From a virus, in IMG/VR virus record IMGVR_UViG_3300044846_005100, positions 62,001-126,000 of that record: a DNA stretch of 64,000 bases, one strand, 5' to 3'. Positions within the stretch are counted from its first letter, which is position 1. Every line of letters begins with the position of its first letter. Positions 11,882-27,058 of the stretch are shown piece by piece. Position numbers and translations under genes: made by a program. Below the pieces are notes generated by a model, which was not told the origin of the DNA, ran no database searches, and worked only from the letters and a program-made list of their open reading frames with translations.

Positions 11882-12112
11882 TTATTTAGTTAATGTGAAA
11901 AATTCGTGTAAATCATAAATGTCAAATAAATGCTCATCTTCTTGGTCATCTATAATAATAATAGCTTCTTTAGCATAAGGATTTTCAGGTTCAAATCCTA
12001 TAATAGGATATGCTTTCCCTATGGTTAAGGCTTCTTCTCTTGTGCTGTGCATTACACATTTTTGTATTGCATACAAGTTAGTACCTATTTCTAAATCTCC
12101 TCTTTCTATCAT
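11882..12112 (-). CDS. Small protein, first gene after promoter module A
   Basis: 76 residues, MIERGDLEIGTNLYAIQ. The fold is probably a small beta barrel: GTNLYAIQKCVM, then GKAYPIIGFE, then an acidic stretch. The pattern of a ligand or nucleic-acid-binding SH3-like barrel fits but is not proven. The promoter -7 box ends 36 bp upstream of the start. Confidence 0.6.
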   Translation of the reverse strand: MIERGDLEIGTNLYAIQKCVMHSTREEALTIGKAYPIIGFEPENPYAKEAIIIIDDQEDEHLFDIYDLHEFFTLTK

Positions 12113-12147
12113 AACATTATTGTTTTTGTTGGTTAAAAAATATGATG

Positions 12148-12215
12148 CAAAATTACTGCTTTTCGTGTTGGGTGTGTTAGCAATTTTGTTGCAAAAACTT
12201 TAAAAATTGTTGCAA
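12148..12215 (-). promoter_or_regulatory. Phased early promoter module A
   Basis: Read leftward: TTGCAACAA (12207-12215) and TTGCAACAA (12186-12194) are 21 bp apart, then a 30 bp gap, then the -7 type box TAATTTTG (12148-12155). No TTG occurs at the canonical -33 spacing. It drives the 11882-12112 gene. Confidence 0.75.
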
Positions 12216-12223
12216 AAAAATAT

Positions 12224-12415
12224 TTATATATCTTTTGCAATTTTTACGAGTTCTGCAAATTCCCGATAAGACAATATTTTTCGCTCCATATTGGTTAATC
12301 CTAAATACTTGTAGTCAATATCCTCAAAGCTATACACAAACATTCTCCCGATGGCTTTATATGTAGTGGTTTTAACCAATCTATACCCAAATAATCCTAA
12401 AATAAATTTTATCAT
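12224..12415 (-). CDS. Small protein, unknown
   Basis: 63 residues starting MIKFILGLFGYRLVKT. A hydrophobic N-terminus is followed by a helical C-terminus (MERKILSYREFAELVKIA). It ends 9 bp before the outer box of promoter module A. Function unknown. Confidence 0.55.
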   Translation of the reverse strand: MIKFILGLFGYRLVKTTTYKAIGRMFVYSFEDIDYKYLGLTNMERKILSYREFAELVKIAKDI

Positions 12416-12422
12416 AATTTTT

Positions 12423-12776
12423 TTATTTGTTTTTTAATAATAAATTAATTTGTTCTAATTGTGCTTCTTTTACAAATTGATAATCTTCTGCACCAACTGC
12501 ATTTTCCAATACCTCTTCAATTCCGTCTTCAAATCTATTGTAGCCTACAATTTTTCCGTCTCCTGCATTAATTATTTTTGCACATTCAGCATAATCATCC
12601 TCCCAAAGAGCAAAACACAATTTCTTTCCAAAGGCAATGTTATACACATACTTCGGGCATCTTATTTCTTTTTCAAGGTCAAACAATGCTTGTCCTACTT
12701 CGTCATCGTGCTGAAATAGGTCATATAATTCCATTTTGTTTTTTAATGCTTCAAATTTTTCTTTAATGTTTTTCAT
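12423..12776 (-). CDS. Unknown protein
   Basis: 117 residues, helical at both ends with a strand-rich middle containing two cysteines (KLCFALWEDDYAECAK). Acidic overall. It lies in a tight string of genes between modules A and B with gaps under 25 bp. Confidence 0.6.
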   Translation of the reverse strand: MKNIKEKFEALKNKMELYDLFQHDDEVGQALFDLEKEIRCPKYVYNIAFGKKLCFALWEDDYAECAKIINAGDGKIVGYNRFEDGIEEVLENAVGAEDYQFVKEAQLEQINLLLKNK

Positions 12777-12782
12777 TTGCTT

Positions 12783-13016
12783 TTATCTATTTATTCTAAC
12801 GTGTCCAAAATAAGTTTCTTCTAAATTCTCTATAATTCGGTCATTCACTAAGTCCATAAATGTCGATATTTCATAATAGCCTAAATGCTCCTCTTCATCG
12901 CTTGTCATACCTAAGTTTTTCAACTCATCTATCATTTCGTGGGTATTATCAAATACTTGATTTTCGATTTCTTCTAAAATTCTTCTATTTTCTAATAATA
13001 ATACTATAATTTTCAT
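12783..13016 (-). CDS. Small acidic protein, unknown
   Basis: 77 residues, MKIIVLLLENRRILEEI. One N-terminal strand, then mostly acidic helix, then a basic end (FGHVRINR). Six base gap to the next gene. Confidence 0.55.
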   Translation of the reverse strand: MKIIVLLLENRRILEEIENQVFDNTHEMIDELKNLGMTSDEEEHLGYYEISTFMDLVNDRIIENLEETYFGHVRINR

Positions 13017-13022
13017 AATTTT

Positions 13023-13253
13023 TTATTTAACTAATTCTTTAATTATATCTTCTACTTCTCCTTCTTCTAAAGCATCACAAATGGAATTAAACTCTCTTCC
13101 ATTTTCTTCTTTAGTTATTCCTCTTAGTCTTGCTATCTCATCAAGAAGTCCTATTATTTCCACGTTACTTTGTGGATTAGGAGATAAAAATCTTGATTCA
13201 GTTTCGTTATTTTGAGCTATATATTTTAACAGCTCTTTCCATTTGTCTTCCAT
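13023..13253 (-). CDS. Small acidic protein, unknown
   Basis: 76 residues, helical and acidic, with the segment CDALEEGEVEDIIKELVK at the C-terminus. No motif recognised. Three bases separate it from the upstream gene's stop. Confidence 0.55.
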   Translation of the reverse strand: MEDKWKELLKYIAQNNETESRFLSPNPQSNVEIIGLLDEIARLRGITKEENGREFNSICDALEEGEVEDIIKELVK

Positions 13254-13256
13254 AAA

Positions 13257-13484
13257 CTATTGAATTTTACTTGTTTTTAAATTTTCTATTGTTATAAATC
13301 TAATTACATCAATGCTTGAATGTATTTCCTCTTCATTGAAAGCACGTTGGAATCCTTCTAAGGTATAAACTCTACCTTGTCTTTCACATTCATCCATCCA
13401 TTCTTTTTCTGTTAATTCCGTAAATCCTTTGTCGATTGAAATATCTTGACAATCTAAAACATATACTCTAATTTCTTTATTCAT
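13257..13484 (-). CDS. Small protein, unknown
   Basis: 75 residues. Contains FTELTEKEWMDECERQGRVY followed by FQRAFNEEE, a pattern seen in small phage proteins of Bacteroidota that I cannot assign to a function. Acidic. Confidence 0.6.
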   Translation of the reverse strand: MNKEIRVYVLDCQDISIDKGFTELTEKEWMDECERQGRVYTLEGFQRAFNEEEIHSSIDVIRFITIENLKTSKIQ

Positions 13485-13506
13485 ATTTTTTTTATTTTAA
13501 TTGTTC

Positions 13507-13713
13507 TTAATAATTATCCTGCAATCCTTCATACCAAAAGTCAGGGAAGTCACAAGGCTCACTACTGAAACCACAAACACAATTAATTTCTTCATCATCT
13601 GTGTTGCAAAACATAACATCCCCACAACCACCACAATTAACTAAATTTACTCCTATTGCTTGTATTTTCTCTTGGAAGGCTATTTGGCTTATTGCAAACT
13701 CTCTTTTTGTCAT
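13507..13713 (-). CDS. Small zinc-ribbon-like protein (paralogue of next gene)
   Basis: 68 residues. A helical start (TKREFAISQIAFQEKIQ) leads to a CGGCGDVMFCNTDDEE and CVCGF region whose Cys pairs suggest a zinc ribbon. It ends DFWYEGLQDN. The same order of elements appears in the gene at 13725-14243, so the two are duplicates. Role unknown. Confidence 0.65.
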   Translation of the reverse strand: MTKREFAISQIAFQEKIQAIGVNLVNCGGCGDVMFCNTDDEEINCVCGFSSEPCDFPDFWYEGLQDNY

Positions 13714-13724
13714 AATTTTTAATT

Positions 13725-14243
13725 TTAATATAAACCACTTTCTTGTTCAAAAATACACTCTGCTATAATCCAATCCGAATCCTCTCCATAAATTTCAATG
13801 ATTTCCTCCACGCTATTATAATAAGAGGAAATGTGTTCTTCTATTTCTTCTTCTGTGTAATTGTCTAAGTTTATATAACTCTCAATAAATTCATCATCCT
13901 CATACTCTGGCAACTCTCTATTTTTTTCTTTAAACTGAAAATATCTTTTATCAAGTTGTCTTCCGTATTGTTGATTATCTAAATCTGTACATTTCCAACC
14001 TAGCTCCTCCATTATTTTTTCTGAATTAAATTCAGCACTATCTTCTAATCCTTCATACCAATAGTCTTGGCAATCGTTGAAATATACTTTTTCTCCACAA
14101 CCAAAACATTCAGTTTCTTCCTCGTTTATATCGTGCATTATGATTGCTGAACATTCATTACATTCTACAATATTTATATTGGCAAATTCTTGGATTCTTT
14201 TTTGCAATTCTATTTGTCTTATTGCTAATTCTCTTCTGTCCAT
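13725..14243 (-). CDS. Zinc-ribbon-like protein with acidic extension
   Basis: 172 residues. The N-terminal 65 residues match the neighbouring 68-residue protein: RRELAIRQIELQKRIQ, then Cys pairs (CNECSA, CFGCGE), then DYWYEGLEDS. The remaining about 100 residues are an acidic extension. A zinc-bound fold is likely. The pair arose by tandem duplication followed by gain or loss of the C-terminal part. Confidence 0.65.
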   Translation of the reverse strand: MDRRELAIRQIELQKRIQEFANINIVECNECSAIIMHDINEEETECFGCGEKVYFNDCQDYWYEGLEDSAEFNSEKIMEELGWKCTDLDNQQYGRQLDKRYFQFKEKNRELPEYEDDEFIESYINLDNYTEEEIEEHISSYYNSVEEIIEIYGEDSDWIIAECIFEQESGLY

Positions 14244-14257
14244 TATTTGATAAGTTT

Positions 14258-14470
14258 TTAGTTAATACATCCTTTTACAAATTTCTCAATAGCTTCATCC
14301 CAATCTAAATCCTCGTCTTCCCATTTGTGGTCTTCGGGATATATGAAAATAAATCTTTCTGCGATTGTGATAGCGGTATCTATTTGTTGGAAAAAACTAC
14401 CATTAATTTTTTCTTCTAATAATTGGTTGTACATTATGTAACCTACCACTCTTGCTAATTCCTTATTCAT
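14258..14470 (-). CDS. Small acidic protein, unknown
   Basis: 70 residues, helical (ELARVVGYIMYNQLLEEKI), with an acidic, Trp-containing C-terminus (WEDEDLDWDEAIEKF). No known family. Confidence 0.55.
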   Translation of the reverse strand: MNKELARVVGYIMYNQLLEEKINGSFFQQIDTAITIAERFIFIYPEDHKWEDEDLDWDEAIEKFVKGCIN

Positions 14471-14471
14471 A

Positions 14472-14684
14472 TTATTTGATATGTTTTAATGAATATAAAC
14501 TCGTCCAAATATGAGCAAATCCTTTCTCTACACAGAAGTTGTATAAATCTTTGTCTGACATTCCTTCAAAATCATGGTCATCAAACATAGTAGATAATTC
14601 TTCCTCACAATGTGTTCTTTCATCCTCTATATAAAAATTTACTACTGAAATTATTGAGGTACGTTCTTCTCTTCCTATGGTCAT
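14472..14684 (-). CDS. Small acidic protein, unknown
   Basis: 70 residues, acidic middle (DERTHCEEELSTMFDDHDFE) and helical C-terminus (DLYNFCVEKGF). One base after its stop lies the next gene's start. No family recognised. Confidence 0.55.
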   Translation of the reverse strand: MTIGREERTSIISVVNFYIEDERTHCEEELSTMFDDHDFEGMSDKDLYNFCVEKGFAHIWTSLYSLKHIK

Positions 14685-14688
14685 AATA

Positions 14689-14997
14689 CTATTGGTTTAA
14701 ATCGTTAAAAAATATTGAATAAATGAATTCGTAGATAGCCACCATATCATCGGTTTCTAAGTCTCCTAAATCCGTTTCTGTGTCATCGGATGTACGGATA
14801 ATAATCAAGTTTCTACGCATTTCTATTTCTTTCACTACTTCGGGGGAATAACAATCTCCCACTACTACAATAGACACATCGTCTTCCTTACTTACTGATA
14901 TGATACTATCTGTTTCAATAATTTCAGAGCAATCTTTTAAAATATTTGCTCTAAGCGTTTGGATAGTTTCATTATAATCTACAAATTGTTTTTTCAT
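14689..14997 (-). CDS. Acidic protein, first gene after promoter module B
   Basis: 102 residues with an alternating strand-helix pattern (ISVSKEDDVSIVVVGDCY) and an acidic C-terminus. The -7 box of module B lies 31 bp upstream. Function unknown. Confidence 0.6.
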   Translation of the reverse strand: MKKQFVDYNETIQTLRANILKDCSEIIETDSIISVSKEDDVSIVVVGDCYSPEVVKEIEMRRNLIIIRTSDDTETDLGDLETDDMVAIYEFIYSIFFNDLNQ

Positions 14998-15028
14998 ATT
15001 CTTTTTATTTTAAATAATTAATTTACTG

Positions 15029-15096
15029 CAAAATTACTACCTTTTGGTGTTTGGGTGTTACAACTTTTGTTGCAATTTATTTAATTTTTGTTGCAT
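15029..15096 (-). promoter_or_regulatory. Phased early promoter module B
   Basis: Read leftward: ATGCAACAA (15088-15096) and TTGCAACAA (15067-15075) are 21 bp apart, then a 30 bp gap, then TAATTTTG (15029-15036). It precedes the 14689-14997 gene. Confidence 0.75.
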
Positions 15097-15157
15097 TATT
15101 TTGATAATTTTGTTGATACAAAGGCTATCAAGAATAATATGCCCATAATACAAACTC

Positions 15158-15736
15158 CTAACCACATACCACATTTTTTATATATCTTTTTTTCATTGAA
15201 ACAAATATTTCCAAAGTCTTAAATTTAGATACTAAACAATCTTCACTAAATTGTAACTTGCTACCCATGATAGGACTATCTCCATGTCCATTTGTAACTT
15301 TTTGGCAAATCTCTTCTGCTTTTTCAGAAGTGAATTGAGTAGGCTCAATAGACATTGTGGTACAAATTTGTTTATTATTATCCACTCCTAAAGAAATACA
15401 AGTTTCTTTATAATAAACAATAGTGTTACATCGTTCCAAACAAGGATATTTTTTGATATTATCAATTATTTTCTCTAATTGACTTATACTTTTTTCAGTA
15501 AATTCAATTATGGAAGACATTTCCTTGATATTGGTAGCAAAAGGGTCTGCTATATCATGGATGATGATTCCATTTTCAGTTTGTTGGGCAAACTTATTTT
15601 GATTTTCTAATAGTGAATAATATTCTTTTTTGTCCATTGTGTACCCTCCATTATTTGAATAGCCCATATTCTGTGGGAGTTGTCCTACATTTGTTTCTTG
15701 AATCGCATAATCTGCGTTTGTTACTAATTTGTGCAT
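15158..15736 (-). CDS. Unknown protein with YSNNGGYTM motif
   Basis: 192 residues. Near the N-terminus is GYSNNGGYTMDKKEYYSLLE (about 25-44), and then ENGIIIHDI. The same order occurs in a 54-residue protein at 22022-22186, so this is a duplicated module with a long C-terminal extension here. The extension has six cysteines and mixed helices and strands. Function unknown. Confidence 0.65.
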   Translation of the reverse strand: MHKLVTNADYAIQETNVGQLPQNMGYSNNGGYTMDKKEYYSLLENQNKFAQQTENGIIIHDIADPFATNIKEMSSIIEFTEKSISQLEKIIDNIKKYPCLERCNTIVYYKETCISLGVDNNKQICTTMSIEPTQFTSEKAEEICQKVTNGHGDSPIMGSKLQFSEDCLVSKFKTLEIFVSMKKRYIKNVVCG

Positions 15737-15755
15737 AATATATAATTTAATTTTT

Positions 15756-16172
15756 TTAATCTAAAAATAATGATGTAATATCTTCTACATGAACAATATC
15801 CTCCTTGCTAAATAGTACTTGATAATCTCCTTCTAAATAATCCTTCACTTCAATTAATAATACTTTAAAATCATGATTGGTTAGCAAAAATTTCAACTCT
15901 TCCTTTATAATCCATTGGTAGAAACATTCAAGGTTTTTATAAGCACAAAATCTACCTTTCATTATTTTATCATCAAATACATCTCTATTTATATATTTTC
16001 CTCCATTAATTCCTGCATCCTTAAAAGGTGCTGGTAATTCCTCATGTAATTTAAGCATATTTTCTGTTTCAGAAGTTTTCCCTAAAACATATCTATCGGA
16101 ATCAATAGCTCTATTGGCTCTAAACATTCCATATCCGTCTGTGTGTTCTACTCTAACTATTTTCTTGTTCAT
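15756..16172 (-). CDS. Unknown protein, first gene after promoter module C
   Basis: 138 residues. Opens MNKKIVRVEHTDGYGMFRA; a helical middle is followed by strands (FKVLLIEVKDYLEGDYQVLF). No signal peptide. The -7 box of module C is 31 bp upstream of the ATG. Confidence 0.6.
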   Translation of the reverse strand: MNKKIVRVEHTDGYGMFRANRAIDSDRYVLGKTSETENMLKLHEELPAPFKDAGINGGKYINRDVFDDKIMKGRFCAYKNLECFYQWIIKEELKFLLTNHDFKVLLIEVKDYLEGDYQVLFSKEDIVHVEDITSLFLD

Positions 16173-16203
16173 ATTTTATTATTATTGGTTAAAAAATATA
16201 GTG

Positions 16204-16270
16204 CAAAATTATGATGTTTTGGGATTCTATCCTAACAATTTTGTTGCAATTAGTTTAAATTTTGTTGCAT
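16204..16270 (-). promoter_or_regulatory. Phased early promoter module C
   Basis: Read leftward: ATGCAACAA (16262-16270) and TTGCAACAA (16241-16249) are 21 bp apart, then a 29 bp gap, then TAATTTTG (16204-16211). The outer box lies inside the 3' end of a 59-codon gene. Confidence 0.75.
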
Positions 16271-16429
16271 TGTTTCTAACTTCGGGATTAACTCTTCAAG
16301 TAACTCTTTTTTACCTAAAAAAAATCCATAAGATTCCGTATCTTCATAATTCATTACATCGGGTGTATTATCTATTATGTTAGAATACTCCTCTAGTCTT
16401 TCTTTTAATTCTTTTATAAGATTTTCCAT
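16250..16429 (-). CDS. Small helical protein overlapping promoter C
   Basis: 59 residues, starting MENLIKELKERLEEYS and ending ETMQQNLN. It is strongly helical and acidic. Its last codons (MQQN) are written by the TTGCAACAA-type promoter box, so coding and regulatory sequence share these bases. The segment SYGFFLGKKELLEEL recalls small phage proteins of unknown role. Confidence 0.55.
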   Translation of the reverse strand: MENLIKELKERLEEYSNIIDNTPDVMNYEDTESYGFFLGKKELLEELIPKLETMQQNLN

Positions 16430-16460
16430 TTTTTATGCTTTTATTGTGAAATAATTTTGA

Positions 16461-16817
16461 TTATGCTTCTTTTGAGGAATTATACCATTGTACAAATTCA
16501 ACACAAGCGTTATAAACTGCTTCAATTTTAGTATTGCAATCATTTGAAAAAGCAAACCCATTCTCTATATATACATCAATAGCACAACCTTGTGGCGCAA
16601 ATAATACATTTGTAAATTCATTATAGTTTTCTATCTTCTCCACTACTTGCATAAGCCAATTCCAATCGGTGTCGTATTTTGTACAATCTAAAAATCTATC
16701 AGTATGCCATTTTTTATGATTAGGAGTATTTTCAAAACCCCAAAATCCTTCATTATTTTGGTAGCAACCCATAAACTCTGCTAATAACTTATTATTTTCT
16801 ATAATTTGTGTATTCAT
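16461..16817 (-). CDS. LLAEFMG-family phage protein (paralogue 1)
   Basis: 118 residues. The core LLAEFMGCYQNNEGFWGF, YDTDWNWLMQVVEKIENY and CVEFVQWYN is shared with the gene at 17073-17642. This short family is common in phages and mobile elements of Bacteroidota, but its function is not known. Aromatic-rich. Confidence 0.7.
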   Translation of the reverse strand: MNTQIIENNKLLAEFMGCYQNNEGFWGFENTPNHKKWHTDRFLDCTKYDTDWNWLMQVVEKIENYNEFTNVLFAPQGCAIDVYIENGFAFSNDCNTKIEAVYNACVEFVQWYNSSKEA

Positions 16818-16818
16818 T

Positions 16819-17064
16819 TTAACAATAATTTAGTATAAAATTTATTAATTTTTCATCAACTCCTTTAGCCTCCAATTCTCTATAAACATGGTCAGCATCT
16901 AAGCATTCACTTATCCACTTGTTACCATTTATATCTAAAAAGCCTATAACATATCCACTATTCATTTCTCCTTCAACTTCGGGAGTTTTCCAAAAGCCTG
17001 CCATTGAAATTTGTTCGTTTGGGGTGCTTATCGACACACATTTCTTAAAATCTATTTCTTGCAT
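16819..17064 (-). CDS. Small protein, unknown
   Basis: 81 residues between two members of the LLAEFMG family, with a one-base gap to the downstream gene. Strand-rich middle (GYVIGFLDINGNKW) and helical end (YRELEAKGVDEKL). No family recognised. Confidence 0.6.
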   Translation of the reverse strand: MQEIDFKKCVSISTPNEQISMAGFWKTPEVEGEMNSGYVIGFLDINGNKWISECLDADHVYRELEAKGVDEKLINFILNYC

Positions 17065-17072
17065 AATTTTAG

Positions 17073-17642
17073 TTATTTATTTTGATTATAATGTTCAACA
17101 AAAGAAACACAACCATTGAAAACTCCTTCGATATTCAAATCCGCCAATGAATAATAAATTTTTTCATAATCTTCCCCCATAAATTCACTTAATGAATAAC
17201 ATTTTTTTACCACTTCTACAAGCAAATTCCAATCCGAATCGTATTTTAAATATCTTGCAATATTCTCAATTATCTTTTCTTTTTCTATTTCTCGTGTGAA
17301 ATAATAAGGGCTATCACTCCATGAATAATGCCCTCCATGATATGAAAGATTATCAAATACTCCCATAAATTCTGCCAACAATTGTTTTTTTGCTACTATG
17401 TCCGTAATGGAAACTATTTCTTTTAACTCAATTTGAGATAAATCCATATCTATTGTAAATCCTAAGGTAACATCACAACTATTAAAAACATGATTTGCTT
17501 TTTCAAGATTATAAGTAATCTCTTTTTTTGCCATTTCTAAAGCCTCTTCTCTACTATCTGTATATACTACTCCATTATCGAAAGAAGTCCATATTGTGCT
17601 TGTAGTTAAGCTATATTCCCATTTTTTGTTTGATTGATTCAT
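17073..17642 (-). CDS. LLAEFMG-family phage protein with N-terminal extension (paralogue 2)
   Basis: 189 residues. The C-terminal about 110 match the neighbouring 118-residue protein (QLLAEFMGVF, YDSDWNLLVEVV, CVSFVEHYN). The N-terminal 75 residues are extra (WEYSLTTSTIWTSFDNG and onward) and may be a separate small domain. Function unknown. Confidence 0.65.
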   Translation of the reverse strand: MNQSNKKWEYSLTTSTIWTSFDNGVVYTDSREEALEMAKKEITYNLEKANHVFNSCDVTLGFTIDMDLSQIELKEIVSITDIVAKKQLLAEFMGVFDNLSYHGGHYSWSDSPYYFTREIEKEKIIENIARYLKYDSDWNLLVEVVKKCYSLSEFMGEDYEKIYYSLADLNIEGVFNGCVSFVEHYNQNK

Positions 17643-17653
17643 TTTTTTAATTT

Positions 17654-17989
17654 TTAATAAGTTAAACTATCTAAATAAGTGCTTGGAAATTCCCACGTTA
17701 TATCCTCATAAACTCGTTCTACAAATTCATTGATAAATTTATCATCTATTGTAGGCATAACTCCGTCATAGGATTCTAATAGATATTCCTTTGCTTCTTC
17801 TTTGTTAAGCCAATTAGTAACAACTTCTTTTATTCTATTCCTACTATAAACATCGTCTATATCCTCTGCATTTTCGGGAATATAACAAGGTGCATCGGGG
17901 TTATTTTTGAAATTTTCATCGTTATAATACCCTCCCTCCGCATTGGATTCTAAGCCGTATTTTTCTATTATTGTATTTAAATTTTCCAT
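17654..17989 (-). CDS. Acidic protein, unknown
   Basis: 111 residues, acidic, with a repeated Asp/Glu/Asn character and helical C-terminal half (FINEFVERVYEDITWEF). Overlaps the downstream end of the neighbour at 17977 by 13 bases, so the two are co-transcribed. Confidence 0.6.
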   Translation of the reverse strand: MENLNTIIEKYGLESNAEGGYYNDENFKNNPDAPCYIPENAEDIDDVYSRNRIKEVVTNWLNKEEAKEYLLESYDGVMPTIDDKFINEFVERVYEDITWEFPSTYLDSLTY

Positions 17990-18255
17990 TTTATATTTAA
18001 AATTGATAAAGATTTTAAAAAATTAATAACTTTTTCTTTTTCTTCTTGTGTAGCCTTCGGGAACATACCATAGTCAGAAGTAAAAAAGCTACTACCTACA
18101 AATCCTAAATTGTTTTCTTCCATTTCAAAAGATATATCTTGTATCTCGTAACAATCAATTGGCTCATCTCCCCAAAATAACTTATTTTCAGCATCCGCCA
18201 TAGTTACTATATGAATATTTCCATTAATGTTTAAAAATTCTATAATTTGCTCCAT
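17977..18255 (-). CDS. Unknown protein
   Basis: 92 residues, MEQIIEFLNINGNIHIV. Strand-rich with a conserved-looking FFTSDYGMFP segment. Its 3' end overlaps the next start. Acidic overall; no family recognised. Confidence 0.6.
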   Translation of the reverse strand: MEQIIEFLNINGNIHIVTMADAENKLFWGDEPIDCYEIQDISFEMEENNLGFVGSSFFTSDYGMFPKATQEEKEKVINFLKSLSILNIKWKI

Positions 18256-18257
18256 AC

Positions 18258-18524
18258 TTATTTGTTTAAATGATTATTACCTAATAAAATTATATCTGTC
18301 TCTATTATATCTTCTTTGGTATTAAACTCTTGAAATCTTAAATCAAAATTAAGATTATTATCTACTAATAATTTTATATATTGATTCATTTCTTCAATTT
18401 GCCAAATTTCAAAAAATTCATCGGGTTTTACTCCTGCAATTCCATTTGTTTTATCGCACCAAATAGTATAATAAAATGTATTTTTATCTTTTACTGATTC
18501 TAATAAGTTTTTTAAATTTTCCAT
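18258..18524 (-). CDS. Acidic protein, first gene after promoter module D
   Basis: 88 residues, helical, acidic, starting MENLKNLLESVKDKNTF. The -7 box of module D ends 35 bp upstream of its start. Function unknown. Confidence 0.6.
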   Translation of the reverse strand: MENLKNLLESVKDKNTFYYTIWCDKTNGIAGVKPDEFFEIWQIEEMNQYIKLLVDNNLNFDLRFQEFNTKEDIIETDIILLGNNHLNK

Positions 18525-18559
18525 TTTTTATGATTTTTACTTGTTAAATAATTTTACTG

Positions 18560-18627
18560 CAAAGTTACTGCGGATTCTATTCTCAATGTTAGCAATTTTG
18601 TTGCAATTTTATTAATTTTTGTTGCAA
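18560..18627 (-). promoter_or_regulatory. Phased early promoter module D
   Basis: Read leftward: TTGCAACAA (18619-18627) and TTGCAACAA (18598-18606) are 21 bp apart, then a 30 bp gap, then TAACTTTG (18560-18567). Confidence 0.75.
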
Positions 18628-18634
18628 CTTTATT

Positions 18635-18952
18635 TTAATTATTTTTTATTGTGTTTGGTTTAGGCTCTGCCATACTATCCTTTGAGGCACTACCTCCTTC
18701 GGGAACAACAAAGTCTTTTTTATCACTATTATAATAATACTTTTCTGCTTCCTCTATCTCGTGTACATAGGCTAATTTCAAATCTATCTCTCCGTTTTCT
18801 ATGCACATGAGTCTAATTAGTTTATCGGGTGCATAGTCTTCGGGTATTACCTCCACTCCCATGATAGGAAAAATTATTTTGGTGCTTTCAGGTACATATA
18901 CCATTGGCGTACCTGCCTTGCAACACTTAATTAATTCTTTTATAGTCTTCAT
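18635..18952 (-). CDS. Unknown protein
   Basis: 105 residues. Mixed fold, N-terminal CCKAGTPMVYVPESTKIIF, ending in a Lys/Pro/Asn tail. It stops 7 bp before the outer box of module D, so readthrough and module D promoter activity meet here. Confidence 0.6.
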   Translation of the reverse strand: MKTIKELIKCCKAGTPMVYVPESTKIIFPIMGVEVIPEDYAPDKLIRLMCIENGEIDLKLAYVHEIEEAEKYYYNSDKKDFVVPEGGSASKDSMAEPKPNTIKNN

Positions 18953-18955
18953 ATT

Positions 18956-19636
18956 CTATTGATTTTCTACTTTTTTATAGATACTCTCTCCGTTGCTAAA
19001 CGTTGCTAAACGTCCGTACTCTTCACTTGATTCTTTAAAGGCTTTTTCTACCATTTCAATTGCTTCTGCCTTTGTTTTTTCTACCCATTTAACTATGTTT
19101 TTAGCTTGCATAGCTTTTAAGCCTGCGTTCATTTCTGTAGTATATAAAAACTCCTCTTCCACTCTGTCCTCGTCTATTTCATAGCCGTTTATCATAACAT
19201 CATATTCCCAATCCAATGTAGCACCCTCGTAATAACCTGCCACGAGTTGCATTGTTATTTCAAAGGTACATTCTATATCCCCGAAATTTTTACTTTTTTG
19301 CATTTCAAAGAAATTTGTACAAGGATAATTTCTATCCATATCGCATTTATTTACGCAATAGCCATACCATTTTTTATACAAAGGATTTTCTTTTAATTTC
19401 TCGATAGTACAATCTTTTTGATGTTCTATATCATCTAAATCTATCTCTTCGGTTTCTACTCCCTCTGAAAGCATATTGTGTCCACAACTTTGGCACTCGT
19501 TTAATGTATCTAAATCATATTCCCAATCTCTATGTATTTCCTCACAATCTTGACAAACTTTTGTTTGAATCTCTTGGTTTGTAAGTACTACAAAGTAGTT
19601 GCTTGCGTTTGTTTTTGCGAAATTACTTGCACCCAT
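18956..19636 (-). CDS. Zinc-ribbon-containing protein, unknown
   Basis: 226 residues. Cys pairs CQDCEE (about 29-34) and CQSCGH (about 49-54) are spaced as in a zinc ribbon, followed by acidic strands and a helical C-terminus (KWVEKTKAEAIEMVEKAF). Zinc binding is a firm guess; the biological role is unknown. The only large protein of the 18-20 kb block. Confidence 0.6.
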   Translation of the reverse strand: MGASNFAKTNASNYFVVLTNQEIQTKVCQDCEEIHRDWEYDLDTLNECQSCGHNMLSEGVETEEIDLDDIEHQKDCTIEKLKENPLYKKWYGYCVNKCDMDRNYPCTNFFEMQKSKNFGDIECTFEITMQLVAGYYEGATLDWEYDVMINGYEIDEDRVEEEFLYTTEMNAGLKAMQAKNIVKWVEKTKAEAIEMVEKAFKESSEEYGRLATFSNGESIYKKVENQ

Positions 19637-19642
19637 ATTTTT

Positions 19643-19891
19643 TTATTTTTTAGTGTTATTTAATGTTTTTCTGAAATAATATTGTTCAATGTATCTCAAA
19701 GTATCTATAGCTTTAGATGATATTCTATCTTTGCCTATTTCAAACCCTATACTTTTAAGATAGGCTTTCTTTGTTTCTATACTATGAATATCTAAAAGAT
19801 TTTGACTATTTAGCCAATTAAAATAATGTGTATTTTCAATTGGAATACTTGTATCTATATCTTTAATTTTGAATAACGTATTTTTAGCCAT
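19643..19891 (-). CDS. Small protein, unknown
   Basis: 82 residues, basic, with the segment SKAIDTLRYIEQYYF. Sits at the end of the group between promoters D and E. No family recognised. Confidence 0.55.
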   Translation of the reverse strand: MAKNTLFKIKDIDTSIPIENTHYFNWLNSQNLLDIHSIETKKAYLKSIGFEIGKDRISSKAIDTLRYIEQYYFRKTLNNTKK

Positions 19892-19970
19892 TTTAAGCGT
19901 GTTTATTTTTGTTTTGAATAAGAACGCCCACTCAAGGACGTTCTGTTTAAATTTGCTATATTAGAGTAGC

Positions 19971-20381
19971 TTAATTGATAGTAGGTAGATAGTTTAAAAA
20001 ATAATCTTCATCAAACCATTGCATAGTACCTTTATAATTATCATTGTATATTAATACTCCATTTGATTCAATTGATTCATAGTGTACCAATACGGCTATG
20101 GACTCTTGAAACGTGTCCTTACAAAGTATTTTTGTAGTGTCAAACAATATAGTGGCTAATTCCTCTACAAAAAAGTCTACATAAATTTTAACCACAATTG
20201 TAGGTTCTATTTGTAGCACTCCATTGGATTCATATTTACCTTCTCGCAATTGGCACAATATTTCAGTATTGTTTGCTTTTAAGCCTCCATACAATTCAAT
20301 GATTCTGTCTTTTGTTTTTTCAAAATCTAATTTGCCTAACGTTCCAATATTCATACCAACGTTTAATTCTATTTTACGCAT
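19971..20381 (-). CDS. Unknown protein, first gene after promoter module E
   Basis: 136 residues from MRKIELNVGMNIG. The longer frame upstream (from a TTG) would cover promoter module E, so this ATG, 36 bp downstream of the -7 box, is preferred. The fold is mixed alpha/beta. Function unknown. Confidence 0.6.
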   Translation of the reverse strand: MRKIELNVGMNIGTLGKLDFEKTKDRIIELYGGLKANNTEILCQLREGKYESNGVLQIEPTIVVKIYVDFFVEELATILFDTTKILCKDTFQESIAVLVHYESIESNGVLIYNDNYKGTMQWFDEDYFLNYLPTIN

Positions 20382-20416
20382 GTTTTTTTCTTTTTTAATG
20401 ATTAATAAATATGATG

Positions 20417-20483
20417 CAAAATTACTACCTTTGTGTATTGTGTCCAACAAGTTTTGTTGCAAAAAACACAACTTTTGTTGCAA
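20417..20483 (-). promoter_or_regulatory. Phased early promoter module E
   Basis: Read leftward: TTGCAACAA (20475-20483) and TTGCAACAA (20454-20462) are 21 bp apart, then a 29 bp gap, then TAATTTTG (20417-20424). Confidence 0.75.
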
Positions 20484-20486
20484 TTC

Positions 20487-20717
20487 TTAATAAGTTTTAT
20501 TTTTATATAGGCTTGAAATTCTTTGGTTACGCACCCTTGTATTTGTCTTTCTTACTGAAATTCTTATCATTTCAATAAAAGATACTACCAAAAATAAACA
20601 TCCATAAGATACAATAAAGATATAAATATCAAAGTGCAATATATCTAAAATCATTGCGTATGTACTTGATATTATTGTTATTGTGCTAATAGCCAGCACT
20701 AAAATTGTTTTTTTCAT
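20487..20717 (-). CDS. Small membrane protein, two helices
   Basis: 76 residues, two hydrophobic segments (about 4-24 and 29-50), followed by a basic tail (RKTNTRVRNQRISS). Inner membrane with a cytoplasmic basic tail is likely. Confidence 0.6.
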   Translation of the reverse strand: MKKTILVLAISTITIISSTYAMILDILHFDIYIFIVSYGCLFLVVSFIEMIRISVRKTNTRVRNQRISSLYKNKTY

Positions 20718-20728
20718 TTTACTTTAAT

Positions 20729-20845
20729 TTAATTTTTTTTATTAATACACGTTTCACATTGGAGGCATAAACCTAATTTATGTTTTTCTACAAAAAATAC
20801 ATTTTTACACGTATTATTTATGCAAAGTATTGGATATTTTTTCAT
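20729..20845 (-). CDS. Tiny Cys-rich protein, possible zinc knuckle
   Basis: 38 residues. It has five cysteines (C8, C14, C31, C34 and C37) in a basic background, with a CLQCETC cluster. The size and spacing suggest a zinc knuckle. It lies in frame with a proper leader and between two co-directional genes. Confidence 0.5.
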   Translation of the reverse strand: MKKYPILCINNTCKNVFFVEKHKLGLCLQCETCINKKN

Positions 20846-20846
20846 T

Positions 20847-20975
20847 TTACTTTAATTTAATTTTGTTAAGTTTTTCTAAAATTAATACTATAAAAACTAT
20901 AAATATATACACTAAACAAGGTATAGTTGCTATTTTTAAGTCTGTGAACAAAAGTTCTTTTAATTCTACTATCAT
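20847..20975 (-). CDS. Tiny single-helix membrane protein
   Basis: 42 residues, MIVELKELLFTDLK, followed by a transmembrane helix (about 15-34) and a Lys-rich end. Its stop lies two bases before the next start. Role unknown. Confidence 0.45.
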   Translation of the reverse strand: MIVELKELLFTDLKIATIPCLVYIFIVFIVLILEKLNKIKLK

Positions 20976-20977
20976 TT

Positions 20978-21217
20978 TTAATCTATTATTTCATTACCAA
21001 ACGTGTCTAAATTTTTACCCTCAAGTATATATATCATTGCTTCAAGGCTTTCATCCCCCCCGAATCCTTCTTCTTTTTCATGTACCTGCTTATATCTTAT
21101 CTCTATAGCTTTTTTAGCTTGTTGTTTTGATAGGTATGCACCTAAAAGTAAGCCCACCCCGAAACATATAATAAACATCCCGAATAAATTGTAATAGTTT
21201 AAACTTGTCTTTTTCAT
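20978..21217 (-). CDS. Small membrane protein, unknown
   Basis: 79 residues. N-terminal helix (about 8-29) in the membrane, then a helical acidic/basic region (KQQAKKAIEIRYKQVHEKEE). No signal peptidase site seen. Confidence 0.55.
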   Translation of the reverse strand: MKKTSLNYYNLFGMFIICFGVGLLLGAYLSKQQAKKAIEIRYKQVHEKEEGFGGDESLEAMIYILEGKNLDTFGNEIID

Positions 21218-21247
21218 TTTGATTATATTTTAAGTTGTTATTTAATA

Positions 21248-21496
21248 TTAATTTTCTACTATTTCATTTTCAAAAATAGATTGATACTTTTTTGGTAGTT
21301 TTTTATACTTTGTAATTTTGTGTCCACTACTCCATGAATTTATGAACGTCTCAAGGATAACAAACGAATTATTTAAGCCACTTAGCACCCAATGCCCCGA
21401 ACCCAAAACTCCCTCGTTAAATTGGTGCGCTATGCCCCCTTTATCAATATAATCATTGATTAATTTGTCCGCAGTTTGATAATTGTATAATTTCAT
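21248..21496 (-). CDS. Small protein, unknown
   Basis: 82 residues, MKLYNYQTADKLINDYI, strand-rich middle (GHWVLSGLNNSFVILETF). No motif recognised; no signal peptide. Confidence 0.6.
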   Translation of the reverse strand: MKLYNYQTADKLINDYIDKGGIAHQFNEGVLGSGHWVLSGLNNSFVILETFINSWSSGHKITKYKKLPKKYQSIFENEIVEN

Positions 21497-21533
21497 ATCT
21501 TTATAATTTTAAGTTGTTATTATTTTAAATTTT

Positions 21534-21941
21534 TTATATTGTACTTTTTGAATAATTATTTACCAATTCTTTTATCTGATTTTCACTATATTTTTTGCAA
21601 ACATACTCCAATGCTTCTGAAATACTTGTAGCGTTTGGTACTTTTATAGTGGCTTTTGTTTTTAAATGTAGTGTATTTAATTCGGGTGCATATTTATGTA
21701 CCTCCAATCCAATTACTTTATTTTCAATCAAAGATAGTTTTTTCAATTCAAACGCTAAATTTACCACCTCTATAGTGAAATTAAATTTTTGAATATTTTC
21801 GGACGTTAAAGCCTCTAATTTGTCTATATTTTGAGTATAATAGTCAATCCTTAGCTTTTTAGCTTTTAACCCGAATTTGCCCTTACAATTCACTTTGTAT
21901 ATGCAATTTTTTACTAATTCTAATTTGTGTAATTTATTCAT
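21534..21941 (-). CDS. Unknown protein behind a hairpin leader
   Basis: 135 residues from the ATG at 21939-21941. A GTG 24 bp upstream (21963-21965) would start inside the leader hairpin, so the ATG is preferred. Repeated Lys/Leu segments; possibly a leucine-rich repeat-like fold (LNTLHLKTKATIKVPN), but too short to be sure. Confidence 0.6.
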   Translation of the reverse strand: MNKLHKLELVKNCIYKVNCKGKFGLKAKKLRIDYYTQNIDKLEALTSENIQKFNFTIEVVNLAFELKKLSLIENKVIGLEVHKYAPELNTLHLKTKATIKVPNATSISEALEYVCKKYSENQIKELVNNYSKSTI

Positions 21942-21951
21942 ATTTTTTATT

Positions 21952-22016
21952 TTTACTACTTGCACCCCGAAAGGTGCAACGCTTTTGGCTTAAAGTCTAT
22001 TTATAGTTGCCAAAAC
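21952..22016 (-). promoter_or_regulatory. Two leader hairpins upstream of 21534-21941
   Basis: On the minus strand TTTTGGC pairs with GCCAAAA, and downstream TTGCACC pairs with GGTGCAA around a five-base loop. The second hairpin is about 20 bp before the start codon. It may control translation or protect the RNA; no poly-T tract follows, so it is not an obvious terminator. Confidence 0.45.
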
Positions 22017-22021
22017 AACTT

Positions 22022-22186
22022 TTAGTGTATTATAACTCCATTCGGAGTACGTTCGATTTTTTTGCCTATAGATTCTAAATATCTATAGTATTCGGCTTTA
22101 TTCATAGTATATCCACCATTATTTGAATATCCTACACTACTTGGAACGTTTGACACTTGTGTTTCTTTTTTTTGATTTTGTACCAT
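22022..22186 (-). CDS. Short paralogue with YSNNGGYTM motif
   Basis: 54 residues. GYSNNGGYTMNKAEYYRYLE and NGVIIH match the N-terminal module of the 192-residue protein at 15158-15736, which lies 6.5 kb away. The C-terminal extension is missing here. A short duplicate of an unknown early domain. Confidence 0.6.
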   Translation of the reverse strand: MVQNQKKETQVSNVPSSVGYSNNGGYTMNKAEYYRYLESIGKKIERTPNGVIIH

Positions 22187-22219
22187 TTTGATTATAATTT
22201 AAATTTATGAATAATTTGT

Positions 22220-22528
22220 TTAATTTGATTGAATTTTGCCATTTTTTACATCTATAATACCTTTAGGTATTTCCCCCCCTCTAAACATTACTTTTTGCCA
22301 CATTGGATAAAAGCACCCCGAAAAATATCTTACCGCAAAACAAGTACTATCAATTGCAATTAGTTTGTAATAGTTAGCCGAAACTCCAATTTCATTATCC
22401 ATGAATTTTGTAGTATTTGAGAAACCGTTGCCAAACCCCCTGCTATTATCTACAAGTCCATTTTTTTCTAATTGTAGCCAATTTGCTTTTGTTAAATCGT
22501 AAAAAACTAAATTTTTGTTATCTATCAT
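22220..22528 (-). CDS. Unknown protein
   Basis: 102 residues, MIDNKNLVFYDLTKANW. Mixed, with aromatic residues near the C-terminus (YFSGCFYPMWQKV). No family recognised. Confidence 0.6.
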   Translation of the reverse strand: MIDNKNLVFYDLTKANWLQLEKNGLVDNSRGFGNGFSNTTKFMDNEIGVSANYYKLIAIDSTCFAVRYFSGCFYPMWQKVMFRGGEIPKGIIDVKNGKIQSN

Positions 22529-22539
22529 TTTAATATAAT

Positions 22540-22707
22540 TTAATTTTGTGAATTTTGTTTTAATTCCTTAATAATAGTTTTAATACCACCTTGTAAATAT
22601 CCTATAGTATAGGCATGAGACACTTTTTTTTCAGTAAATTGTGTTTCACTATCTTGTAAAAGACTTTCCAAAGTTTTTAAAATTGCATTTTTTTGTTGAT
22701 TTTTCAT
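22540..22707 (-). CDS. Small helical protein, unknown
   Basis: 55 residues, MKNQQKNAILKTLESLL, followed by a segment (KKVSHAYTIGYLQGGIK). It has an A-rich leader and fits the string of leftward genes. No family recognised. Confidence 0.5.
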   Translation of the reverse strand: MKNQQKNAILKTLESLLQDSETQFTEKKVSHAYTIGYLQGGIKTIIKELKQNSQN

Positions 22708-22734
22708 TTTGATTATATTTTAATTTGTGAATAA

Positions 22735-23070
22735 TTAGTTTAATGTTATTAAAAAGTGTCTATCAAATTTATACCCTAATTCCTTAGCTATGTTATTGCA
22801 CGCCTTTAGCCAAAGGCTTGTATATAGCACCATTTTTGGACTTGTAGGATATTGTGTACCTAAATACCACAATATAGTATCTTTATTATCTATTTGACTT
22901 TGCAAACATTTGTATTTGTGCATAGATTCGCTTAACTCGCTTTTTGCCTCGTTTAACGTTTCACAATCTTTGAAAATAACATCCCAAACACTTTGTTCTA
23001 AATTATCATTGCTTTTAATAGCACCGCTTTTAATCATTGCAAATTTTGCTTTTTTACTTAATTTTTTCAT
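22735..23070 (-). CDS. Unknown protein, first gene after promoter module F
   Basis: 111 residues from MKKLSKKAKFAMIKSG. An upstream frame start would overlap the leader, so this ATG is preferred. Lys-rich start, helical middle, and a Leu-rich C-terminus. The -7 box of module F lies about 130 bp upstream, so the leader is longer than in the other modules. Confidence 0.55.
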   Translation of the reverse strand: MKKLSKKAKFAMIKSGAIKSNDNLEQSVWDVIFKDCETLNEAKSELSESMHKYKCLQSQIDNKDTILWYLGTQYPTSPKMVLYTSLWLKACNNIAKELGYKFDRHFLITLN

Positions 23071-23199
23071 TTTATATTTTTTTAAGTTTTTAAATATTGT
23101 GTTTAACAGGAAACATAGTACACCCATTCACTTTTTGACATACCTCTAGCAGTAGCCTTTTAGTGCTTATGTACCAATCCCTCCCGATTAATAACAATG

Positions 23200-23267
23200 C
23201 AAATATACAACATTCCGCACCCCTATTCCTACAACTTTTGTTACACAAAATAGTAATTTTGTTGCAA
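23200..23267 (-). promoter_or_regulatory. Phased early promoter module F (most divergent copy)
   Basis: Read leftward: TTGCAACAA (23259-23267) and GTGTAACAA (23238-23246) are 21 bp apart, then a 30 bp gap, then TATATTTG (23200-23207). It is the rightmost copy, the first leftward promoter after the divergence region. Confidence 0.65.
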
Positions 23268-26960: not shown

Positions 26961-27031
26961 GCCTCTATGACCGAGTGGCTAGGTGTAGGTCTGCAAAATC
27001 TATTACGGAGGTTCGATCCCTTCTGGAGACT
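26961..27031 (+). tRNA. tRNA-Cys (GCA)
   Basis: Cloverleaf: acceptor GCCTCTA with TGGAGAC (one mismatch, one wobble), D arm ACC...GGT with AGTGGCTA loop, anticodon stem TAGGT/ATCTA around loop CTGCAAA (anticodon GCA), and T arm GGAGG-TTCGATC-CCTTC. Discriminator T. CCA is not encoded. The stretch just before it (26893-26960) holds two hairpins (GCC/GGC and CAACT/AGTTG) but no full tRNA. Confidence 0.85.
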
Positions 27032-27058
27032 CTTTTTAAAACAAAAAACATTAAAATT

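What the first reader, a model, noticed from the sequence alone, without database searches (positions are those of the whole stretch)
12148..23267. Six copies of a phased promoter module control the early arm
Six intergenic regions (near 12.15, 15.03, 16.20, 18.56, 20.42 and 23.20 kb) share the same design on the minus strand: two TTGCAACAA-type boxes whose starts lie exactly 21 bp apart in all six, a gap of 29 or 30 bp, then a TANNTTTG box. The usual TTG at 19 bp upstream is absent in every copy. Two helix turns between boxes and a fixed distance to the promoter indicate a protein binding the same face of DNA, probably a phage- or host-encoded activator that replaces the -33 contact. The design appears only in the block of small unknown genes.
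Basis: partly seen in the sequence, partly recalled or inferred. Interest (0 to 1): 0.85.

Follow-up and report, generated by a model that had tools for sequence, protein, structure and literature searches.

The report
Phage early promoters with HTCS-type operators
Six operons of small genes in a crAss-like bacteriophage each start with the same twin-box promoter, and that design is otherwise found on Bacteroidota chromosomes next to genes for AraC-type, mostly sugar-sensing, regulators, which suggests the phage lets a host activator switch on these genes.

Summary
Six minus-strand modules (two TTGCAACAA-type boxes exactly 21 bp apart, 29/30 bp, TAnnTTTG) lie at 12.15-23.27 kb and nowhere else in the 140-kb record; Markov simulations give 0.0. 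Relatives with 41-54% identical proteins downstream keep the boxes while upstream flanks fall to ~30% identity.

The main new result is outside the phage. A scan of ~85,000 prokaryote genomes for the module gave 47 hits, 46 in Bacteroidota, 41 with a gap of exactly 29 bp. The gene just upstream of host modules is often an AraC-type regulator, mostly a hybrid two-component system (HTCS): 9/25, against 6/119 other nearby genes. Published HTCS operators are direct repeats averaging 21 bp. The phage clade has no detectable AraC domain.

Best reading: HTCS/AraC-type activator sites in front of host-sigma -7 boxes, with the activator most likely supplied by the host. This would be notable because crAss-like early genes are thought to be read by the virion RNA polymerase. 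Host, cognate regulator, timing and transcript starts are unknown. The operator type is known; its use in a phage early arm appears new.

The parts
12148..12215 (-). Module 1: box1 12207-12215, box2 12186-12194, TAATTTTG 12148-12155; first gene 11882-12112
   Evidence: orthologous module before the orthologous gene (41-43% aa identity) in five related records
15029..15096 (-). Module 2: box1 15088-15096 (ATGCAACAA), box2 15067-15075, TAATTTTG 15029-15036; first gene 14689-14997
16204..16270 (-). Module 3: box1 16262-16270 (ATGCAACAA), box2 16241-16249, TAATTTTG 16204-16211 (gap 29); first gene 15756-16172
18560..18627 (-). Module 4: box1 18619-18627, box2 18598-18606, TAACTTTG 18560-18567; first gene 18258-18524
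20417..20483 (-). Module 5: box1 20475-20483, box2 20454-20462, TAATTTTG 20417-20424 (gap 29; also a TTG at N20); first gene 19971-20381
23200..23267 (-). Module 6: box1 23259-23267, box2 23238-23246 (TGTGTAACAA), TATATTTG 23200-23207; first gene 22735-23127
   Evidence: orthologous module in G003 and G012 before the orthologous gene (~51% aa identity)
11882..23127 (-). Co-directional small genes, six putative operons each headed by one module; nearly all without a database match

Best explanation
Each module is an activator-dependent promoter of the HTCS/AraC type. Two direct-repeat half-sites of about 16 bp (TTGCAACAAAAnTTnA), 21 bp apart, are bound by two AraC-type DNA-binding domains on the same face of the DNA. 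The promoter-proximal half-site ends near the -33 position. The bound activator recruits host RNA polymerase with its primary sigma to the Bacteroidota -7 box TAnnTTTG, in place of a -33 TTG. The phage clade encodes no recognisable AraC domain, so the activator is most likely a host HTCS or AraC-family protein, and the six copies make one regulon of the small-gene arm. Shown: geometry, conservation across relatives, the same module on host chromosomes beside HTCS/AraC genes, and absence of a detectable AraC domain from the phage. Inferred: protein binding, activation rather than repression, host origin of the activator, early timing.
For:: 6 modules against 0.0 expected; orthologous sites keep box1 (92-100%), box2 (78-100%) and the -7 box (81-88%) while the 60 bp upstream is ~30% identical; 47 hits in ~85,000 genomes, 46 in Bacteroidota; 41 have gap 29 although 27-32 was allowed; the nearest same-strand upstream gene is an AraC-HTH regulator in 9/25 host modules against 6/119 other genes (Fisher p=9e-5), often ending within ~90 bp of box1; in Prevotella L075 the module heads an HTCS gene; these proteins carry Reg_prop, Y_Y_Y, HisKA, HATPase_c, Response_reg and HTH_18; 3 of 26 HTCS genes drawn without reference to the motif have TGnAACA-like pairs at 21 bp plus TAnnTTTG downstream (L379 closest). 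(PMC3878776): all 16 predicted Bacteroides HTCS motifs are direct repeats averaging 21 bp, one kind being two 16-bp sites with a 5-bp spacer; no HTH_18 at E<=1 in the phage or ten relatives.
Against: The phage's exact extended operator was not found near any host gene: 0 of 398 Flavobacteriales, chance-level hits in 195 Cytophagales, so no cognate regulator or host is known. Phage gaps are mostly 30 bp, host gaps 29. The host association is partly inflated by related species (five Cyclobacterium hits), and most host modules have no AraC gene immediately beside them. Cultured crAss-like phages are reported to read early genes with a virion RNA polymerase (PMC10136315). A diverged or novel phage activator cannot be excluded.
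Confidence: 0.6

Rival explanations
1. The same promoters are switched on by a phage-encoded activator with a DNA-binding domain no library recognises, made very early or carried in the virion, as T4 MotA serves T4 middle promoters.
For: Most small early-arm proteins have no match. The full module with the extended box occurs only in this phage clade among viral contigs and the extended box was not found in sampled hosts. Six copies behave like a dedicated regulon.
Against: It does not explain why the same 21+29 geometry and core box occur on Bacteroidota chromosomes beside HTCS/AraC genes. No HTH_18 or LytTR domain in the phage.
Confidence: 0.22
2. The boxes are operators of a LytTR-family regulator, whose direct repeats also lie about 21 bp apart (AgrA, ComE and AlgR types; from memory).
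For: LytTR-only genes lie just downstream of the module in Portibacter and Runella loci.
Against: No enrichment: upstream 0/25, downstream 1/37, other genes 2/119. Runella has 71 LytTR genes, so neighbours by chance are expected. Upstream regions of about 20 other LytTR genes show no such boxes. In Runella the gene upstream of the module is itself AraC-type.
Confidence: 0.07
3. The modules are promoters of the crAss-like virion RNA polymerase, and the likeness to host promoters is convergent.
For: In phi14:2 early genes are transcribed by the virion polymerase in a rifampicin-resistant way (PMC10136315).
Against: TAnnTTTG is the host sigma -7 box and also heads late-oriented genes of this phage. 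The same module occurs on host chromosomes. A distant relative (terminase 73% identical) has none.
Confidence: 0.06
4. The boxes are sites for a host repressor, or for an architectural or replication protein, rather than an activator.
For: The sign of regulation cannot be read from sequence; direct repeats of about 21 bp also occur as replication iterons (from memory).
Against: Fixed distance to a -7 box in all six copies, lack of a consensus -33, position before genes in six separate places, and host counterparts at PUL-type genes.
Confidence: 0.05

Closest known systems
HTCS (AraC-type hybrid two-component system) operators of Bacteroides PULs (Ravcheev 2013, PMC3878776)
   Same: Direct repeats, average 21 bp between tandem sites, monomers on the same face; one group has two 16-bp sites with a 5-bp spacer
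   Different: Those serve polysaccharide genes beside an HTCS gene; here six copies head phage operons and no HTCS gene is in the phage
AraC araI1-araI2 activation site of E. coli (from memory)
   Same: Two direct half-sites 21 bp apart upstream of a promoter with a weak -35
   Different: Different half-site sequence, Bacteroidota -7 element and a longer distance to it
T4 middle promoters (MotA box plus -10; from memory)
   Same: A phage promoter class in which an upstream box and activator replace the -35 contact
   Different: MotA is phage-encoded and its box sits near -30; here twin boxes lie further upstream and the activator appears host-encoded
crAss-like early transcription by virion RNA polymerase (phi14:2, crAss001; PMC10136315, PMC8375218)
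   Same: Same kind of phage and a similar block of small genes on one arm
   Different: There host RNAP is not needed for early genes; the promoters here are of the host sigma type

Membership tests
HTCS/AraC-type operator-promoter | Two direct-repeat half-sites with ~21 bp between them | tested here: met
   21 bp in all six and in relatives; published average 21 bp
HTCS/AraC-type operator-promoter | The same module lies beside HTCS/AraC genes on host chromosomes | tested here: met
   9/25 upstream genes against 6/119 others, p=9e-5; domains confirmed
HTCS/AraC-type operator-promoter | Cognate HTCS/AraC regulator encoded in the same replicon | tested here: not met
   No HTH_18 in the phage or ten relatives; it would have to act in trans from the host
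HTCS/AraC-type operator-promoter | Half-site equals that of a characterised HTCS | not tested
   Motif logos of PMC3878776 could not be read here; similar half-sites seen downstream of HTCS genes
HTCS/AraC-type operator-promoter | Regulator binds and activates | not testable with these tools
   Needs EMSA, footprinting or a reporter assay
Bacteroidota sigma-A promoter | TAnnTTTG near -7, upstream of a gene start | tested here: met
   39-80 nt before the first start codon in all six
Bacteroidota sigma-A promoter | TTG about 19 bp upstream (-33) | tested here: not met
   Absent at N19 in all six; copy 5 has it at N20
LytTR operator | Association with LytTR genes | tested here: not met
   No enrichment; no LytTR domain in the phage
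Crassvirales | crAss-like portal, terminase and major head protein | tested here: met
   PHROGs matches; portal ~28-30% identical to many crAss-like phages over ~88% of its length

The most novel reading that the evidence does not exclude
A crAss-like phage clade has put much of its early arm under a host sugar-sensing hybrid two-component regulator, so that expression of these genes, and perhaps infection itself, depends on the glycan state of the host and on host RNA polymerase rather than on the virion polymerase alone.
Probability: 0.3. Interest if true: 0.88.

Novelty: new variant of a known kind. Interest (0 to 1): 0.66.

Why it matters
Crassvirales are major phages of Bacteroidota, and their early transcription is attributed to an ejected polymerase. 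A regulon of host-type, activator-dependent promoters in the early arm would mean that some clades use a second route and may read the host's nutritional signalling. It gives a concrete motif to test in a phage-host pair. The host-side result, an HTCS/AraC operator-promoter with a fixed 21 + 29 bp layout across Bacteroidota, is useful on its own for finding HTCS regulons.

Tried and rejected
LytTR was my first idea from the 21-bp spacing and two LytTR neighbours; it was dropped when adjacency was counted against a control and AraC came out instead. Literature searches for the box sequence and for LytTR in Bacteroidetes gave nothing useful. A search for autoregulatory 21-bp repeats upstream of LytTR genes failed. 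An unbiased repeat scan downstream of 26 HTCS genes gave only 1 strict and 3 relaxed hits, and the 21-bp spacing did not stand out there, so these boxes belong to a subset of HTCSs at most. A phage-encoded sigma factor and histidine kinase/response-regulator pair looked relevant at first, but they lie in the first ~40 kb of the record, which has higher GC and almost no match to any relative, so that part is probably mis-joined and was set aside. Searches for a host carrying the phage's exact extended operator found none. A terminator scan found no more than shuffles. Relaxed viral scans added only coding-sequence coincidences outside the clade.

Full report
Observation. On the minus strand box1 starts at 12215, 15096, 16270, 18627, 20483 and 23267; box2 starts 21 bp later in every copy; the gap to TAnnTTTG is 30, 30, 29, 30, 29 and 30 bp. 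No other place in the 140,223-bp record has the design. With a strict definition there are 6 observed and a mean of 0.0 in 200 Markov simulations; same-strand box pairs at 21 bp alone are 6 against 0.045. Two statements need trimming: 9 of the 12 boxes are literally TTGCAACAA, and copy 5 has a TTG at N20, although none has one at N19.

Anatomy. Aligning the six copies with five from relatives shows that the conserved unit is longer than 9 bp: TTGCAACAAAAnTTnA for box1 and TTGCAACAAAAnTTGnTAaca for box2. This is about 16 bp per half-site, with about 5 bp between half-sites. The spacer to the -7 box is not conserved in sequence. Each module is followed 39-80 nt downstream by the first gene of a co-directional run, so the genes from 23.1 kb down to below 12.1 kb form six putative operons. 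Other intergenic TAnnTTTG sites in the record have no boxes; a few have a TTG at N18-19 and most others have AT-rich upstream sequence.

Conservation. The window belongs to a crAss-like phage: terminase, portal and major head protein match PHROGs head families and the portal is ~28-30% identical to many crAss-like phages. Relatives with 71-100% identical terminase were fetched. A near-identical record (G008) carries all six modules; others carry one to three; a relative with 73% identical terminase carries none. Two sites can be compared as orthologues: module 1, before a gene whose protein is 41-43% identical in five records, and module 6, before a gene ~51% identical in related records. There the boxes and -7 element stay at 78-100% mean identity while the 60 bp upstream is ~30% and the spacer 21-50%.

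The module on host chromosomes. Scanning one genome for each of ~85,000 species for TGCAACAA-N13-TGCAACAA-N27-32-TAnnTTTG gave 47 hits; 46 are in Bacteroidota and 41 have a gap of exactly 29, although six gap lengths were allowed. Relaxing the pattern in 396 Bacteroidota genomes gave 15 sites against one in the reversed control, three of them in one Runella contig within 18 kb. The downstream genes are mostly secreted proteins, enzymes of PUL-like loci, or regulators. The nearest same-strand upstream gene is an AraC-HTH regulator in 9 of 25 testable modules, against 6 of 119 other genes in the same loci (p=9e-5), often ending within ~90 bp of box1. Pfam shows several to be complete HTCS proteins (propeller, Y_Y_Y, HisKA, HATPase, receiver, HTH_18), and the Runella one to be an AraC-TPR protein. 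The related Cyclobacterium species are not independent, but Runella, Olivibacter, Arachidicoccus, a Saprospiraceae, a Crocinitomicaceae and others add separate lineages. Of 26 HTCS genes chosen without reference to the motif, 3 have TGnAACA-like pairs at 21 bp and a TAnnTTTG downstream.

Known counterpart. Ravcheev et al. [quoted passage not shown] AraC itself binds direct half-sites 21 bp apart (my knowledge). LytTR regulators also use ~21-bp direct repeats (my knowledge), but LytTR genes are not enriched at the module.

Who supplies the activator. HMM searches found no AraC (HTH_18) domain at E<=1 in the phage or ten relatives, no LytTR domain in the phage, and no recognised DNA-binding activator among early-arm proteins. 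The first ~40 kb of the record encode a sigma factor and a histidine kinase with receiver, but that stretch has ~40% GC against ~29%, and almost nothing in it matches any relative, so it is probably a mis-join and is not counted as part of this phage. A host activator is therefore the simplest reading, but it is inferred. The phage's exact extended box was not found in 398 Flavobacteriales, and only at chance level in 195 Cytophagales, and the phage gap is mostly 30 where host gaps are 29. The host is unknown.

Why it is of interest. Reviews of cultured crAss-like phages state that the virion RNA polymerase reads early genes independently of the host (PMC10136315; PMC8375218). Six host-sigma-type, activator-type promoters heading the small-gene arm do not fit that picture simply. 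Either this clade uses host RNAP for part of its early programme, or these genes are not early in the same sense, or the promoters serve a later phase. Rifampicin and 5'-end mapping would decide.

Confidence. That the modules are functional operator-promoters of the AraC/HTCS kind I put near 0.8. That the activator is host-encoded brings the full statement to about 0.6. That a glycan-sensing HTCS specifically gates infection is about 0.3.

Noticed in passing
G000 record 1-~40000 (L004, L005; outside the window): Probable chimera: GC falls from ~0.40 to ~0.29 between about 38 and 43 kb, and almost no protein before that matches any relative, whereas most of the later ones do.
   Followed up: partly
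L005:8990-10615 and L005:8566-8997 (- strand): PAS-PAS-HATPase_c kinase followed by a stand-alone receiver protein and, downstream, a GH19-type endolysin, in the doubtful part of the record; a phage two-component pair next to lysis genes.
   Followed up: partly
L004:3073-3792 (-): Sigma-70-like protein (regions 2 and 4; phrog_351), in the doubtful part of the record.
   Followed up: partly
L198 near 11140 and L201 near 9956: Relatives carry another 21-bp-spaced repeat, two copies of GTACATTTTTGTAC, upstream of a gene.
   Followed up: no
L037-L039, L046-L048: The terminase gene match is about 1 kb longer than in the window's phage, suggesting an intron or other insertion.
   Followed up: no
window 24489, 29043, 35030, 43524, 48507, 56771, 56813 (+): Late-oriented genes have TAnnTTTG preceded by AT-rich sequence with no TTG at -33, perhaps a second promoter class.
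   Followed up: no
window 26961-27032: tRNA-Cys (GCA) gene near the start of the plus-strand arm.
   Followed up: no
L006:8725-10077 (-): Deoxynucleoside monophosphate kinase frame that also matches HNH endonuclease families, apparently with an inserted endonuclease.
   Followed up: no
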